Positions 11,712 to 20,234 of a stretch of 40,241 nucleotides of DNA are shown piece by piece (the first letter of the stretch is position 1; each line of letters opens with the position of its first letter). Below the pieces are notes generated by a model. That model had not been told where the DNA came from. It worked only from the letters and a program-made list of their open reading frames with translations, and ran no database searches. Made by a program: the position numbers and the translations under genes. The stretch spans positions 1 through 40,241 of the forward strand of contig JADGAN010000046.1 of the NCBI GenBank assembly GCA_015231955.1. Reading direction: 5' to 3'. The stretch is from Oligoflexia bacterium (GTDB lineage: Bacteria > Bdellovibrionota > Bacteriovoracia > Bacteriovoracales > Bacteriovoracaceae).

Positions 11712-11830
11712 TAAGTTTGTAGTTATGTTAAGTTAACGCCCACTGTCCATCTATAAACATCATTAATATTTAACATAATTTTTCAATATAATGTTAGGAC
11801 ACTCTTGAGTTATTAACCAGGAGGTGTGTG

Positions 11831-12727
11831 ATGCGTTTATTGAAAAGCTATGTAAGTTTTTTAAAAGATGAGCAGAATTTAACTAGTGGCACCATTAAAC
11901 ATTATGAAAGGGATGTCCGTTGTTTTTTGAAAACAATAAAAGGATACGCTACCCCTGCATTGCTGAAAAAAATTTCCGCCTCATTAATTCATCAGTACAT
12001 TGTTGAAATTTTTAGATCCTACAAAAGAGAAAAACGAAGACAAACTTCAGCTGCCATTCGAAGTTTTCTGAAATTTTCTTATCAAAAAGGTTATTTGAAA
12101 AAAAACTTAACCTATTCAGTTCCTACAATACGATTACCCAAGCTTGCATCATTGCCTCGTGGATATCCATGGGAGATTGTTAAAAAAATCGTACAATCAC
12201 CAAATCGAAAAACTCACTCTGGATGCCGTGATTATGCAGTTTTGCAAATATTAGCAAGTTACGGTGTTAGATCAAAGCAAATTGTTGATCTAAAACTTAA
12301 AGATATTGATTGGCATGCAGCCACTATCAGTTTTCATTCTTGTAAAGGTGGTAAACCATTATGTTTTCCCTTAACGAAAAATGTTGCATTAGCAGTTATT
12401 AATTATTTAAAGAAATATCGTGATAACAAAACTCCTCATCAGAATTTATTTTTAAGTGTGAGAGGATTACCACGACCGTTCAGTGGAATTAGTTGTAATA
12501 ACATTCTTCGAGCTTGCCATGAAAGGCTTGATTTTAAGTTTCCGCATCAAGGGGCACACTCAATCCGCCATGCTTTTGCGACTAACCTTATTGAAAAAAA
12601 CATACCAATAAAAACCATCTCAGATTTATTAGGGCATCGTTCAATAAATACAACATTTATTTATACCAAAGTTAACTTAAAAAAACTTCGCAAACTTGCA
12701 CGCCAATGGCCTAAGTGGGCTTTATGA
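11831..12727 (+). CDS. Tyrosine recombinase/integrase, XerC/D-like
   Basis: The product has 298 residues. The N-terminal SAM-like DNA-binding domain is about residues 1-95 and the catalytic domain about 120-298. Active-site signatures are present: Arg in Y-G-V-R-S-K-Q-I, H-S-I-R-H-A-F (HxxR), L-L-G-H-R-S (the second His) and the nucleophile Tyr in T-F-I-Y-T-K-V-N. It should catalyse site-specific DNA strand exchange. A strong GGAGG (11819-11823) precedes ATG 11831. Its stop overlaps the start of a second, broken recombinase (ATGA), so the two formed an operon, as in elements carrying tandem recombinases. Length and motifs suggest it could still be active. Confidence 0.92.
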   Translation: MRLLKSYVSFLKDEQNLTSGTIKHYERDVRCFLKTIKGYATPALLKKISASLIHQYIVEIFRSYKREKRRQTSAAIRSFLKFSYQKGYLKKNLTYSVPTIRLPKLASLPRGYPWEIVKKIVQSPNRKTHSGCRDYAVLQILASYGVRSKQIVDLKLKDIDWHAATISFHSCKGGKPLCFPLTKNVALAVINYLKKYRDNKTPHQNLFLSVRGLPRPFSGISCNNILRACHERLDFKFPHQGAHSIRHAFATNLIEKNIPIKTISDLLGHRSINTTFIYTKVNLKKLRKLARQWPKWAL

Positions 12728-13400
12728 AAAAGACATTGAAGGATCTTATCGATCAATATCTTGATTTTCGCAAATCGTTTGGGTGTTCTGATCAATACAT
12801 CAGACTTAATCTTTATCGATTTTATCAGTACCTGGTAATCAACTTCCCATCAGCAAAAACCATTACCAGACCAATGTTGGTAGGTTTTCTTGGACACAAT
12901 AAAAACCTACATCCAAATACTCTTAAAAACAGTGTTTCCTGTATAAAACATTTCTGTCTTTTTCTTGTTCAGCATGAAATCAAGACTTATGTTCCAGTCG
13001 GAGGAGAGATCTTTTTTCATAAAAAAATTCTGTATGCCCTTATGTTTTTAAAAAGGAAGAAATTGCTTTAATGATTAAATGTGCTTTGAATATAAAATAC
13101 AGATCAAAGAGAGAGTCTTTCAAACCTTATACTTATTCTACATTGATCTCATTGCTGTGGGTAAGTGGTTTACGGATTGGCGAGGCACTTCGGTTAAATA
13201 TTGAGGATATCGATTTTGAGCGGCTTGTTTTAAATATACGACTGACAAAGTTTTTTAAATCAAGACTGGTTCCAATATCAAAATCCACTGGTTATGCTTT
13301 GAAAAAATATCTACAACTTCGTAAATCTTATGGATACAAATCAAAACTCAAAGATCCAGTTTTTATTAACAGTGATGGGGTGAGGTGTAAAATAACCAAT
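12724..13400 (+). pseudogene. Second tyrosine recombinase, frameshifted and truncated
   Basis: Frame 1 (12724-13071) encodes a SAM-like core-binding domain and then runs off-frame. The continuing homology (P-Y-V-F-K-K-E-E-I-A-L-M, then V-S-G-L-R-I-G-E-A-L-R-L with the catalytic Arg) lies in another frame, open to 13469. The switch maps to a run of seven A near 13021-13027. After D-P-V-F-I-N-S-D-G (around 13380) similarity stops; the HxxR and Tyr regions are missing. The 3' end joins unrelated DNA before the peptide-transporter remnant. ATG 12724 overlaps the stop of the intact recombinase. Confidence 0.8.
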
Positions 13401-13599
13401 GTGGATGTCACGTTTCCATGTTGTATTTTCCTGGTTAAACATTTTATCAATTGCTTGTTTCAACATTGATTCGTGCTTTAGAATATTATACAACAACGAG
13501 CAATATACATGATTTTGTTTTTCAACAAATCAAATGAAACCAAGAGCATATATATTGAGTATAAAATAAATTAAAATTATTGCTGCCAACTAGACTTAG

Positions 13600-14167
13600 T
13601 CCCTCAACCCTCACAAGAATAAAAATGATGATTAATGCCGAAATGCGCTTCCACTCTGGAACTTCATCCATTGCTGTTCGTGTCTGCGTTTGCAGCAGTT
13701 GATGCTTCAGTTGCTCTTCTTCGTGTTTTCGTTGCCATGCTGGTAAACGATCGGCCGCCATGACATGCTTACGAAAGACCCAAAAAATAATCATGGAGAT
13801 GATCATACCAGCTGCGGCCGCTAAAAAGGTCGCGCGATATCCAAGGCCATGTAGAAGATGGTGATATTGGAGTTTGTTAACAGGCATTGGCCAATGAAGA
13901 AAAAGAGAGCGCCTACGTAATACAGTAGCGAGTTCCTAAAAAGCGATCCGCCAAAAAACCGCCAAGTAAAGGGCTTGCATAGACAAAGGCCGAATACCAT
14001 GAGTAGACGTTCGTGGCCTCCGCTGTACTCCAACCAAAGCCTTGAACGGGATCTTTCACATAGAGCATTAAGACGGCGAGCATCGTGTAGAAACTAAAAC
14101 GCTCCCACATCTCCGTCGAAAAAAAGACGTACAAACCAATAGGGTGCTTTTCTACTGTGTCACTCAT
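13600..14167 (-). pseudogene. Decayed POT-family peptide transporter (dtp-like)
   Basis: From ATG 14167, preceded by GAGGA, the reading is H-P-I-G-L-Y-V-F-F-S-T-E-M-W-E-R-F-S-F-Y, then G-G-F-L-A-D-R-F-L-G-T-R. This is the classic N-terminus of proton-coupled di/tripeptide transporters. After GTR the frame is lost. Further helices (Y-Y-V-G-A-L-F-F-F-I-G-Q-C-L, then A-A-A-A-G-M-I-I-S-M-I-I-F-W-V-F) lie in other frames with a gap of roughly 100 residues, so there is an internal deletion plus at least one frameshift. Homology ends near E-W-K-R-I-S-A-L-I-I-I-F (around 13620), where sequence next to the broken recombinase begins. It is non-functional; the intact family member has about 480-500 residues. 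Confidence 0.85.
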
Positions 14168-16046: not shown

Positions 16047-16310
16047 TTGGCGGAGATAAAGGATCTAAAGAAGGTAAAACTAACTTTTTTCATTCCAACA
16101 ATAGCGTTTGGTGTTTTTCTATATGCACTGACAAAACCTTCCTTTGAGTGGAGTTTTGCTGTCATTATCTTATTGGCCCTCATTGCTGCCATCATTTCTT
16201 CAGTTCACCATGCAGAGGTTCTTGCGCATAGGCTTGGTGAAATAATCGGAACACTCATTCTCGTCATCATTATCTCGGAAGGATCTGGGGCCGGCACTAT
16301 AAAACTGTAA
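16047..16310 (+). pseudogene. N-terminal fragment of a ChaA/Cax-type cation:proton antiporter
   Basis: An 87-residue frame from TTG 16047, with an AGAGGGGG ribosome-like site before it, has two hydrophobic helices. It then reads S-S-V-H-H-A-E-V-L-A-H-R-L-G-E-I-I-G-T-L-I-L, which strongly matches the early signature of Ca2+/H+ antiporters of the ChaA family (H-A-x-V-L-A-H-R-x-G-E-P-x-G-x-L-x-L). Normal family length is about 360. Right after this the chain reads S-E-G-S-G-A-G and stops. That short end resembles the later S-P-E-G-L-G-A motif of the same family, so a large internal deletion may have joined the two parts. It is only 25 bp before hpdB and is probably co-transcribed but without function. 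Confidence 0.6.
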
Positions 16311-16335: not shown

Positions 16336-19014
16336 ATGCACAATGAATTGAAGTTGTTTCCAAGAGAAATAAAAGGTCAGATGTCTGAGCGTACTCAAAA
16401 ATTACTTAAAATTTACTATCAGACACTCTCTTCTGTCGACAATGAATTTCCCTACTGGTACTCCAGAAAATATTTTGAGCTGGATAACGAAGTCGCTGCC
16501 GTCAGAAGAGCTCAAGCGCTCAAAGAAGCCTTCTCTCACCTTACTGCTGTAATCTTTCCGGGGGAACTGATTGTTATGCAAAAGACTATGCATTATCGAG
16601 GTTCTTTTGCCATGCCTTGGCTGTCCGAAGGATACTTTATGTCCAAAGAGGACGAATTTTATCAGGCGTCACTAAAGCGAGGCTCTACAAGTGCGGATCA
16701 ACACTCAAAAATGGGAAGCGGTGGTGGTAATGTGACCAAAAGTTTTGGTAAGGTTGTTTCCATTGCTGGCAAATTTGGAATTAGAGAAGAGGAGATGCCG
16801 GCCCTCTTAGAACTCGCTCGCATGTGGTATGGGAAATCGGTCGATGATTTGGGTAATAAATATGAAAAAATGGTTCCTGGGTACGATTGTAAAGAAAAGA
16901 TCATGAGAAGCTTGGTCTGCATGTTTGACTCCGGATATACATTACCACAGGGAAGAGAGGTGATTAATTACTACTATCCTCTTCAATATGGATTTGATGG
17001 ATTGATTAAAATTGCTTCGGATAAAATGTCAGAGGTGGCAGGATTTGCTAATGGTGATGGGATGGTAGGCATGAATCGTCTATACAACTATCAAGCGATC
17101 AAGCTCGTTTTAGAGGGAGTTCAAGCTTGGATTCTAAACTATGCAAAAGAGGCAAAACGTTTAGAGCATATTGAAAACGACCTTGATCAAAAACAAGAGT
17201 ATCAAGAGATTTATGAAAATTTGCAGTGGATTGCTTATCACCCGCCTCGAAGCTTTAAAGAGGCCTTGCAACTCTGTTGGACTTTGCATATTGCAGTCTT
17301 AAATGAAGATGCAATCTCTGGTCTGTCGCTTGGGCGCTTAGGACAAGTGTTATATCCTTATTATGAGAATGATCTTCGCAATGGGAAAATAATTGAGGAA
17401 CAGGTGATCGAGCTTTTAGAGCTGCAGCGACTGAAATTTACTTGTGTAGATTGTTTTGCCTCCATGGGTGTAGTCGGAGGAGTTTTATCTGGAAACACCT
17501 TTAATAACCTAAGCATTGGAGGTACGGATAAAGATGGAAGGGATGCCTCTAATACATTGGAAATGTTAATGCTGGAAGCAGGAATCAGATGTCCGACACC
17601 TCAACCAACCCTCTCCTTACTTTATGATGACAAGCTTGACGACGAATTCCTTCTGAAGGCCGTGCAGTCAGTGAAGACAGGGACTGGTTATCCTGCCTTT
17701 ATGAACAACCGAGTGGCCATGGAATTTCTACTGGAGCAATATCGAAACGAAAACATGAATATTGAAGAGGCCCGTGCCTGGTCCATCGGTGGTTGCCTGG
17801 AGACTTCACCTTGTTCCTGGATGCCTTTGAAAATAAATTCCGATCCTAAAACCTATTACATCCCCGGAGGATCAGGACAGCCGACTAGTGTCGGAGTACA
17901 CTTTGTTTCTCTTCCAAAAGTGTTGGAGCTAGTGCTGTTTGATGGTGTTGATCAACGAACTTCCGAATCGGTATTGGAAAAGCATAATCGAAAACTTAAC
18001 TCTTATGATGAATTGCTGGCAACTTTTAAAGATTATTTTTCCAAAATTGTGGAGTTGCTGGTTCGTTGTAATAATATTCAGCATGATATCTGGCGAAAAA
18101 ACAACATGGCGATTTTTAATTCTCTCTTAAAACCGGACTGTCTGAGTAAAGGGCATTTAATTAATGAATTGGGTTATCGTTACAATGCCACCTTTAATAT
18201 TGAAACTACGGGCACCATTAATTTGATCAATAGTCTGGCTTCACTGAAAAAAAATATTTACGACGAGAAGAGGATGACCCTTGATGAATTAAAATGGGCG
18301 ATAAAAAATAACTGTGGATATAAAACAGCAGAGTCGATTAACTCTTACTCTTTGATGGATCAGGTAAAGATTGCGGATACAGAGGGAGTGACTAGAAGGG
18401 AGCTTGAGCATTTTGAGGAAATTCATTCTCTCCTGATGAAGGCCCCCAAATATGGAAACTCAGAAGAGTATGTTGATAGCATCCTCAAGGATTGGGAGGA
18501 TTGGTTCACCGGAATGTGCCGTAACTATCAATCCCTTTACGGCCATCCTCTCTATGCCTGCCAGATCTCTGTCTCCACTCATGGTGCAATGGGTGCTGTT
18601 ACCTCGGCCACTCCTGATGGCCGTCTGGCAGGCACCACCTTTGCTGATGGATCGCTCTCTGCCTATCCGGGTACGGATAAGAATGGTCCCTTTGCCTTGA
18701 TGAACTCTGCAACTTGTTTTGATCACTCAAGATCTCAAAACACGCAGCTTAATTTTAAGTTACATCCGATGGCGATTGCAGGAAATAGCGGCTCTAAAAA
18801 GTTGCTAGAACTTATCCGGGGTTATATGCGAAGAGGTGGCTTCCATTTGCAATTTAACGTCGTTGACACCAATATGTTAAAGGATGCCCAGAAACACCCG
18901 GAAAACTATCGTGATCTTTTAGTGCGTGTTGCTGGTTTTACTCAGTACTGGGTAGAAATTGGAAAAAATATTCAAGATGAAGTCATTGCAAGAACTGAAT
19001 ATGGTGAAATGTAA
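16336..19014 (+). CDS. hpdB: Glycyl-radical 4-hydroxyphenylacetate decarboxylase, large subunit
   Basis: The product has 892 residues, close to the roughly 900 of clostridial HpdB/CsdB. It should decarboxylate 4-hydroxyphenylacetate to p-cresol in anoxic cytoplasm. Active-site Cys487 and Glu489 lie in G-G-C-L-E-T-S-P-C, the decarboxylase-type version of the GCVE(P) loop. The glycyl-radical site is R-V-A-G-F with Gly867. Downstream H-F in V-G-V-H-F and Glu in F-N-I-E-T-T-G-T-I-N match regions that I recall bind the phenol side of the substrate. AAGGAG precedes ATG 16336 by about 9 nt. The small subunit (hpdC) and activase (hpdA) follow directly, the order known from Clostridioides. Phenylacetate or indoleacetate decarboxylase is an alternative, but the small subunit favours 4-hydroxyphenylacetate. 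Confidence 0.88.
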   Translation: MHNELKLFPREIKGQMSERTQKLLKIYYQTLSSVDNEFPYWYSRKYFELDNEVAAVRRAQALKEAFSHLTAVIFPGELIVMQKTMHYRGSFAMPWLSEGYFMSKEDEFYQASLKRGSTSADQHSKMGSGGGNVTKSFGKVVSIAGKFGIREEEMPALLELARMWYGKSVDDLGNKYEKMVPGYDCKEKIMRSLVCMFDSGYTLPQGREVINYYYPLQYGFDGLIKIASDKMSEVAGFANGDGMVGMNRLYNYQAIKLVLEGVQAWILNYAKEAKRLEHIENDLDQKQEYQEIYENLQWIAYHPPRSFKEALQLCWTLHIAVLNEDAISGLSLGRLGQVLYPYYENDLRNGKIIEEQVIELLELQRLKFTCVDCFASMGVVGGVLSGNTFNNLSIGGTDKDGRDASNTLEMLMLEAGIRCPTPQPTLSLLYDDKLDDEFLLKAVQSVKTGTGYPAFMNNRVAMEFLLEQYRNENMNIEEARAWSIGGCLETSPCSWMPLKINSDPKTYYIPGGSGQPTSVGVHFVSLPKVLELVLFDGVDQRTSESVLEKHNRKLNSYDELLATFKDYFSKIVELLVRCNNIQHDIWRKNNMAIFNSLLKPDCLSKGHLINELGYRYNATFNIETTGTINLINSLASLKKNIYDEKRMTLDELKWAIKNNCGYKTAESINSYSLMDQVKIADTEGVTRRELEHFEEIHSLLMKAPKYGNSEEYVDSILKDWEDWFTGMCRNYQSLYGHPLYACQISVSTHGAMGAVTSATPDGRLAGTTFADGSLSAYPGTDKNGPFALMNSATCFDHSRSQNTQLNFKLHPMAIAGNSGSKKLLELIRGYMRRGGFHLQFNVVDTNMLKDAQKHPENYRDLLVRVAGFTQYWVEIGKNIQDEVIARTEYGEM

Positions 19015-19039
19015 AAATCAAAAATATAGGAATGAATCC

Positions 19040-19321
19040 ATGAAAAACAAAACACAATATCACTATAGAGACACATTAAACTATGCACCCGTAGATGTCG
19101 TGAAAGGTATTGATCTTATCACGAAATCGTTGGTTAAAGCGGATGACTTGGCACCTCCTGAGTATGAGTTGCTCCCTAAGTGTAAATTTTGTAAACACTT
19201 TAGTTCTGGTGCAAACTCCAATTACAAGGGAAGCTGTTTGGGGTTTGCCAAACCCTTTCTTGCCTATCCTGATATGATTGCAAAAACCTGCAGTAGCTAT
19301 ATCAAGAATGAGCATGAGTGA
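19040..19321 (+). CDS. hpdC: 4-hydroxyphenylacetate decarboxylase small (iron-sulfur) subunit, variant
   Basis: The product has 93 residues from ATG 19040, starting 25 bp after hpdB. It shows the HpdC-type C-terminal half: P-K-C-K-F-C-K-H-F with Cys48 and Cys51, G-S-C (Cys66), and Y-P-D-M-I-A-K-T-C (Cys84). This spacing matches the four-cysteine [4Fe-4S] site of the clostridial small subunit. The N-terminal half is alignable (V-D-V-V-K-G-I-D-L ... A-P-P-E) and keeps a His (His8). However, positions where clostridial proteins have the three cysteines of the other cluster carry Thr, Asp and Pro. Only four Cys exist in the chain. The subunit is thought to support regulation or radical storage of HpdB. 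Confidence 0.85.
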   Translation: MKNKTQYHYRDTLNYAPVDVVKGIDLITKSLVKADDLAPPEYELLPKCKFCKHFSSGANSNYKGSCLGFAKPFLAYPDMIAKTCSSYIKNEHE

Positions 19322-20234
19322 AGATTTAGCACTGATTTTTGATGTCCAGGGATACTCTGTACACGATGGCCCTGGACTTAGAACCACAATATTTTTTAGT
19401 GGATGTCCTCTTTCTTGCCTTTGGTGCTCAAATCCCGAGGGGATGCTGTTTAAGAAAAGAATTATGTACAATGCATTACACTGCAAACTTTGTTTGAAGT
19501 GTAATGAGCGATGTATTTTGCTCGAAAAAAACTGTAAGGATTGTCAGCTACTATCGTGTGTTGAGGCTTGCCCCCACCAAGCGCTAAGGGTCTGCGGTAA
19601 GCACTATTCCATCAATGATTTAATGAGAATTTTCCGAAGAGATCGTCCCTTTTGGGGAGCAGAGGGAGGTGTTACCTTTAGTGGAGGAGAGCCACTACTG
19701 CAAGAAAAATTTTTGCATCAAATCCTGACGGAGTGTAATAAAACTCATATTCACACCGCCATCGAGACCTCTGCATACATGGAAAACTGTGATGATTTCC
19801 TGGATATCATGGAGCACGTTGATTTTGCTTTTATTGATGTGAAGGCAATGAATGAAGAGAAACATCGAAAACTGACTTCCGTTTCCAATAAAATAATTTT
19901 AAGGAACATTAGGGATTTGGCCCGATGCCAGAAAGAAAAAATACGATCTGAAAAACTTGTTTTGCGATATCCAGTCATTCCAGGGATGAATGATGATGAT
20001 CAAAACGTCGAGGCATTAATCGATTTTATGCAGGAAACAGAATTAAAGGTGATTAACATTCTCCCTTTTCATTCCATGGGGAGTTCTAAATACGATTTGT
20101 TAAACTTAAATTATGAGTTTAAAGATCTCCTTTTCCCGAGTATCGAGGAGAGAGCGGGGCAGATGGCAAACATCGCAGAAAAATTTGCTGCAAAAAAGAT
20201 TCAATGTTTTATTGGCAGTGAGACACTCTTTTAA
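19308..20234 (+). CDS. hpdA: Glycyl-radical-enzyme activating enzyme (radical SAM)
   Basis: This is the activase that abstracts hydrogen from Gly867 of HpdB using S-adenosylmethionine. Counting from ATG 19314, the radical-SAM motif C31-x3-C35-x2-C38 follows D-G-P-G-L-R-T-T. An inserted ferredoxin-like region has eight Cys (57, 60, 63, 67 and 74, 77, 82, 86), enough for two extra [4Fe-4S] clusters, as in HpdA and other long activases. T-F-S-G-G-E-P-L-L is the SAM-binding GGE motif. ATG 19308 and 19314 both overlap the end of hpdC (stop 19319-19321), so translation is probably coupled. There is no strong ribosome site. At about 307-309 residues it has the usual length. It ends before a convergent gene. 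Confidence 0.9.
   Translation: MSMSEDLALIFDVQGYSVHDGPGLRTTIFFSGCPLSCLWCSNPEGMLFKKRIMYNALHCKLCLKCNERCILLEKNCKDCQLLSCVEACPHQALRVCGKHYSINDLMRIFRRDRPFWGAEGGVTFSGGEPLLQEKFLHQILTECNKTHIHTAIETSAYMENCDDFLDIMEHVDFAFIDVKAMNEEKHRKLTSVSNKIILRNIRDLARCQKEKIRSEKLVLRYPVIPGMNDDDQNVEALIDFMQETELKVINILPFHSMGSSKYDLLNLNYEFKDLLFPSIEERAGQMANIAEKFAAKKIQCFIGSETLF

What the first reader, a model, noticed from the sequence alone, without database searches (positions are those of the whole stretch)
19040..19321. HpdC-like small subunit lacking all N-terminal cluster cysteines
The 93-residue protein keeps Cys48, Cys51, Cys66 and Cys84 with the spacing of the C-terminal [4Fe-4S] site of 4-hydroxyphenylacetate decarboxylase small subunits. 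It has no other cysteine. From memory, the clostridial subunit uses one His and three Cys for a second, N-terminal cluster. Here the aligned positions appear to be Thr12, Asp25 and Pro39 or Pro40, while His8 remains. A single-cluster small subunit would challenge the view that the two-cluster arrangement is essential for radical control, and could mark a separate subfamily with different regulation or substrate.
Basis: partly seen in the sequence, partly recalled or inferred. Interest (0 to 1): 0.75.

Follow-up and report, generated by a model that had tools for sequence, protein, structure and literature searches.

The report
Single-cluster HPAD small subunit subfamily
This gene encodes the small helper subunit of a p-cresol-making radical enzyme that has lost the attachment site for one of its two iron-sulfur clusters; related bacteria share the loss, so nature has already made a test of what that second cluster is for.

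Summary
Window 19040-19321 encodes a 93-aa HpdC (NF033716, 78.5 bits, cut-off 50; best PDB match 2y8n_B) whose only cysteines are 48, 51, 66 and 84. It lies between hpdB (1489 bits, cut-off 1150; all catalytic residues checked are kept) and hpdA. One correction: the ligand histidine aligns with Tyr9, not His8, so all four N-terminal ligands are gone. In 20 HpdC-like proteins compared, 15 keep the full N-terminal ligand set; five lack all of it and share Tyr, Thr/Val, Asp, Pro there. Three of the five sit beside HPAD-type large subunits, in different families; those large subunits form one clade (98-100% support). Rooting puts this clade inside the two-cluster forms (AU p 0.008), so one ancient loss is most likely. 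The N-terminal half is still predicted to fold like 2y8n_B (Z 12.4, 1.6 A). Most likely this is a 4-hydroxyphenylacetate decarboxylase with one C-terminal [4Fe-4S] cluster per small subunit, the N-terminal half kept as a scaffold. That this overturns radical control is not shown: the clusters' function is unknown, and related enzymes already use single-cluster subunits. New variant of a known kind.

The parts
16336..19014 (+). hpdB, HPAD large (glycyl radical) subunit, 892 aa
   Evidence: NF033715 1488.8 bits vs cut-off 1150; 52% identical to 2y8n_A; Cys503/Glu505/His536/Glu637/Gly873 equivalents kept
19028..19032 (+). AGGAA, likely ribosome-binding site of hpdC
   Evidence: sequence read directly; inference
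19040..19321 (+). hpdC, HPAD small subunit lacking the N-terminal cluster ligands, 93 aa
19064..19066 (+). Tyr9 codon, in place of the ligand His (His3 in 2y8n_B)
   Evidence: column check; Tyr in all five variants
19073..19075 (+). Thr12 codon, in place of ligand Cys6
19112..19114 (+). Asp25 codon, in place of ligand Cys19; Asp in all five variants
19154..19156 (+). Pro39 codon, in place of ligand Cys36; Pro in all five variants
19181..19192 (+). Cys48 and Cys51 codons (CxxC) of the C-terminal [4Fe-4S] site
   Evidence: invariant in all 19 rows of the small-subunit alignment
19235..19237 (+). Cys66 codon, C-terminal [4Fe-4S] site
19289..19291 (+). Cys84 codon, C-terminal [4Fe-4S] site
19314..20234 (+). 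hpdA, radical SAM activating enzyme with CX3CX2C and an eight-cysteine ferredoxin-like insert; overlaps hpdC by 8 nt
   Evidence: NF033717 349.5 bits (cut-off 420, so below it), TIGR02494 299.7 over cut-off 174; motif read

Best explanation
An hpdBCA operon for a 4-hydroxyphenylacetate decarboxylase whose small subunit carries one [4Fe-4S] cluster instead of two. The activase HpdA puts the glycyl radical on HpdB; HpdB decarboxylates 4-hydroxyphenylacetate to p-cresol through the Cys/Glu pair and the phenol-binding Glu. HpdC sits on HpdB, holds a cluster in its C-terminal HiPIP-like half (Cys48, 51, 66, 84), and keeps its N-terminal half as a folded, cluster-free scaffold that binds and stabilises HpdB. 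The N-terminal cluster was lost once, in the ancestor of a subfamily found in at least three bacteria of different families. Shown here: sequence, operon, subfamily, retained catalytic residues. Inferred: one cluster per subunit, the scaffold role, p-cresol as product.
For: Family models and PDB match. All catalytic residues checked are kept. 15 of 20 HpdC-like proteins keep all four N-terminal ligands and 5 keep none; in those 5, Tyr, Asp and Pro are invariant at three of the four positions, as expected of an inherited, selected state and not of decay. Partner large subunits form one clade at 98/99 and 100/100 support, activases at 92/90. Rooted with other glycyl radical enzymes, holding the two-cluster forms together as one clade is rejected (p-AU 0.008), and the Cys-x2-Cys two-cluster pair branches first, so the N-terminal site is ancestral. 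AlphaFold model: mean pLDDT 87, about 95 across residues 11-50, and it matches 2y8n_B over 83 residues (Z 12.4, rmsd 1.6 A). BSS-gamma and MASS-gamma, each with one cluster, serve or are thought to serve solubility of their catalytic subunits (PMC12358834, PMC12590467).
Against: No iron or activity measurement. Few sequences: three operon-linked members, one (G058) joined from two contigs of a MAG and with a broken activase frame. The model was made from an alignment that holds canonical relatives, which may impose their fold. Root position rests on long outgroup branches.
Confidence: 0.74

Rival explanations
1. The loss is coupled to altered radical handling: in canonical HPAD the N-terminal cluster, with redox-capable residues of HpdB, quenches or drains the radical when substrate is absent; this subfamily has dropped that path and its radical lifetime and oxygen or substrate control differ.
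For: Of 307 HpdB columns invariant in nine canonical enzymes, only 7 are changed in all three variant partners, and 4 of these are Trp471Phe, His622Leu, Cys639Thr/Ala and Cys706Leu, whereas C/W/H make up 20 of 307 (hypergeometric 4e-4). [quoted passage not shown]
Against: The residue class was chosen after seeing the list (0.009 if Tyr and Met are added); the number of clade-specific changes is about what the stem length predicts compared with other clades; no distances could be measured; the proposed role is unconfirmed.
Confidence: 0.2
2. The N-terminal site still binds a metal, but a different one (mononuclear iron or zinc) through Tyr9, Asp11, Asp19 or Asp25.
For: Tyr9, Asp11, Asp19 and Asp25 are invariant in all five variants. 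MASS-delta is a precedent for a mononuclear iron accessory subunit (PMC12358834).
Against: Asp11 and Asp19 are equally conserved in the two-cluster forms, so they serve another purpose; Tyr plus Asp alone is a poor site; Pro replaces the fourth ligand.
Confidence: 0.07
3. Simple decay: hpdC in this genome is on the way to being lost and the missing cysteines have no meaning.
For: Few genomes of the phylum keep the operon (2 of 369 over cut-off), and broken genes lie nearby in the window.
Against: The same replacements occur in two other genomes, the four C-terminal cysteines and the reading frames are intact, and hpdB keeps every catalytic residue checked.
Confidence: 0.04

Closest known systems
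4-hydroxyphenylacetate decarboxylase (HpdBCA / CsdBCA) of Clostridioides difficile and Clostridium scatologenes (PDB 2y8n, 2yaj)
   Same: Operon order, large-subunit active site, C-terminal HiPIP-like cluster motif, predicted overall fold of the small subunit
   Different: All four N-terminal cluster ligands (His3, Cys6, Cys19, Cys36) replaced by Tyr, Thr, Asp, Pro; Trp471, His622, Cys639 and Cys706 of HpdB changed
Gamma subunits of benzylsuccinate synthase and (1-methylalkyl)succinate synthase
   Same: Small accessory subunit of a glycyl radical enzyme with one [4Fe-4S] cluster in a HiPIP-like fold, thought to aid solubility; MASS-gamma matches the C-terminal half of the model (Z 4.5, 45 residues)
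   Different: Those are shorter (about 53-60 residues) and match the C-terminal half only; they serve hydrocarbon addition to fumarate; no close sequence relation shown
High-potential iron-sulfur proteins
   Same: Fold of the C-terminal half (weak matches, Z 2-3)
   Different: Electron carriers, not enzyme subunits

Membership tests
HPAD small subunit (NCBIfam NF033716) | Score over the curated equivalog cut-off | tested here: met
   78.5 vs 50 bits
HPAD small subunit (NCBIfam NF033716) | Gene between hpdB and the activase | tested here: met
HPAD small subunit (NCBIfam NF033716) | C-terminal [4Fe-4S] ligands (four Cys) | tested here: met
   Cys48, 51, 66, 84
HPAD small subunit, two-cluster type | N-terminal [4Fe-4S] ligands (His or Cys, plus three Cys) | tested here: not met
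   Tyr, Thr, Asp, Pro; hence not filed with the two-cluster type
HPAD small subunit (NCBIfam NF033716) | Fold of 2y8n_B | tested here: met
   Predicted model, Z 12.4, 83 residues, 1.6 A
HPAD small subunit (NCBIfam NF033716) | Required for HpdB activity; measured Fe and S content | not testable with these tools
   Needs purified protein
HPAD large subunit (NF033715) | Cut-off score, glycyl radical Gly, thiyl Cys-x-Glu, phenol-binding Glu | tested here: met
   1488.8 vs 1150 bits; residues; roles of Cys503 and Glu637 in PMC4979209
HPAD activase (NF033717) | Curated cut-off score | tested here: not met
   349.5 vs 420 bits although it is the best match; divergent activase; the general glycyl-radical activase model TIGR02494 is passed
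BSS/MASS gamma subunit | Sequence relation to BssC/MasC | tested here: inconclusive
   Only the C-terminal half matches 9o8u_C in fold (Z 4.5)

The most novel reading that the evidence does not exclude
The N-terminal cluster of HPAD and the HpdB residues Trp471, His622, Cys639 and Cys706 form a redox path that drains idle radicals; this subfamily lost the whole path and so is a natural mutant with different radical control.
Probability: 0.15. Interest if true: 0.7.

Novelty: new variant of a known kind. Interest (0 to 1): 0.5.

Why it matters
What the clusters of the HPAD small subunit do is still open. A natural subfamily that keeps the C-terminal cluster motif, the N-terminal fold and the whole active site but not the N-terminal cluster ligands lets that question be tested with native enzymes in place of destabilised mutants. 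It also brings HPAD closer to the single-cluster gamma subunits of hydrocarbon-activating enzymes, and names candidate HpdB residues that changed together with the cluster.

Tried and rejected
Upstream TTG start that would add one Cys: inside hpdB and without support. His8 as a kept ligand: off by one column and not conserved in relatives. Different substrate: active-site residues checked are those of HPAD. Relatives in viral contigs and plasmids: none. A search of genome contigs with HpdB gave only four loci. Excess of clade-specific HpdB changes: not in excess for the stem length; only their kind is unusual. Contact distances between the changed HpdB residues and HpdC could not be measured because no coordinates are given out. 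The C-terminal ligand numbers I recalled for 2y8n_B did not fit the alignment and are not used.

Full report
What is there. Window 16336-20234 holds a compact operon: hpdB (892 aa), hpdC (93 aa, 19040-19321) and hpdA (activase, ATG at 19314, overlapping hpdC by 8 nt). hpdB passes the NCBIfam equivalog cut-off for the 4-hydroxyphenylacetate decarboxylase large subunit (1488.8 vs 1150 bits) and hpdC that for the small subunit (78.5 vs 50); the activase is closest to the HPAD activase model but below its cut-off (349.5 vs 420). The only PDB relative of hpdC by sequence is 2y8n_B.

The observation. HpdC has four cysteines only, 48, 51, 66 and 84, in the C-terminal cluster motif that is present in all 19 rows of the alignment. 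At the N-terminal ligand columns (His3, Cys6, Cys19, Cys36 of 2y8n_B; ligand identity from my own knowledge of the structure paper, columns checked) it has Tyr9, Thr12, Asp25 and Pro39. All four ligands are therefore gone.

How common it is. I searched the phylum of the window (369 genomes), 398 genomes of the phylum of a Clostridia MAG, 149 and 395 genomes around a Desulfovibrionaceae MAG and smaller groups. Twenty HpdC-like proteins including 2y8n_B were compared: 13 have His and three Cys, two have Cys in place of His (G369b, G657), and five have none of the ligands (the thirteenth canonical one, L058; the first Cys of G657). The five are the window, G058 (same phylum, other family), G904 (in the family of the Desulfovibrionaceae MAG), and two proteins from one genus of the window's family (G024, G129). 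Tyr, Asp and Pro are invariant in the five; the second position is Thr (three) or Val (two).

A subfamily, lost once. The large subunits next to the window, G058 and G904 small subunits form one clade (98/99 with one outgroup, 100/100 with five), although the tree holds no small-subunit data. The activases group as well (92/90). With five other glycyl radical enzymes as outgroup, the pair with Cys-x2-Cys small subunits branches first (99/99) and a tree that holds all two-cluster forms together is rejected (p-AU 0.008). The simplest reading is an ancestral N-terminal cluster lost once. Long outgroup branches are a caution.

Substrate. Equivalents of Ser344, Cys503, Glu505, His536, Glu637 and Gly873 are all kept in the three. 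Glu637 takes the phenolic proton and Cys503 is the thiyl radical residue (PMC4979209; PMC6181972), so 4-hydroxyphenylacetate is the likely substrate.

Mechanism. The predicted structure of HpdC (mean pLDDT 87, about 95 over residues 11-50) matches 2y8n_B over 83 residues with Z 12.4 and 1.6 A, and single-cluster MASS-gamma over its C-terminal half only. I infer that the N-terminal half is kept as a scaffold on HpdB without a cluster. This fits the role given to gamma subunits in keeping their catalytic subunit soluble (PMC12358834, PMC12590467). The small subunit of the C. difficile enzyme is essential for activity according to a title cited there (Andrei et al. 2004); which cluster matters is not known from the papers held.

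A hint, not a result. Among 307 HpdB columns invariant in nine canonical enzymes, seven differ in all three partners: Trp471Phe, His622Leu, Gly624Asn, Cys639Thr/Ala, Cys706Leu, Leu763 and Phe795Met. Four of seven are Cys, Trp or His against 20 of 307 overall (4e-4, a class picked afterwards). The number of changes itself is ordinary for the stem length. If these residues lie between the N-terminal cluster and the active site, the loss would have removed a redox path; I could not measure distances.

What the finding does and does not overturn. It suggests that N-terminal ligands are not needed in every HPAD. It does not overturn an established view of radical control, because a 2025 source calls the function of the HPAD small subunit unknown and its role in radical reduction unconfirmed. 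I found no report of a single-cluster HPAD small subunit in the open-access papers searched; the subscription papers on HPAD were not readable.

Two relatives stand apart: G024 and G129 carry an HpdC-like protein with the same N-terminal signature and a long insert in the C-terminal half, in a shared context, and no HPAD large subunit was found in either genome (94% and 84% complete). Their partner is unknown.

Noticed in passing
L052:5604-5969 (G024) and L053:5131-5490 (G129): Orphan HpdC-like proteins (121 and 119 aa) with the Tyr/Val/Asp/Pro signature, four Cys and a long insert, next to a coiled-coil exported protein, in genomes where no HPAD large subunit was found. Partner unknown.
   Followed up: partly
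L039 (G739) and L044 (G618): HPAD-like large subunits beside two-cluster HpdC but with Glu505 to Ala, Glu637 to Ile and His536 to Arg or Leu: probably a different reaction or substrate.
   Followed up: no
L005 (G369b) and L049 (G657): HPAD-like large subunits with Glu637 to Trp and His536 to Gly; their HpdC proteins have Cys-x2-Cys in place of His-x2-Cys, and they branch first in the rooted tree. Possibly an undescribed decarboxylase group.
   Followed up: no
L002:1399-2117 (G058): The activase frame next to the G058 variant hpdC is broken with a missing core stretch; assembly error or decay not distinguished.
   Followed up: no
G000 contig 18, 43073-44851 (L033) and G024 contig 61 (L030): CutC-like glycyl radical enzymes (TIGR04394 994 and 920 bits, just under the 1050 cut-off), so this family has more than one anaerobic radical enzyme.
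   Followed up: partly
window 11828-14167 and 16047-16310: Tyrosine-recombinase-like ORFs, a peptide-transporter-like gene in several frames and a short cation-antiporter-like fragment just upstream of hpdB (names by eye, not searched): signs of a rearranged spot, perhaps where the operon came in.
   Followed up: no
L038:4833-7586 (G904): In G904 an MFS transporter gene lies between hpdC and the activase, like the arylacetate-uptake MFS proposed for Olsenella HPAD clusters (PMC6181972).
   Followed up: no
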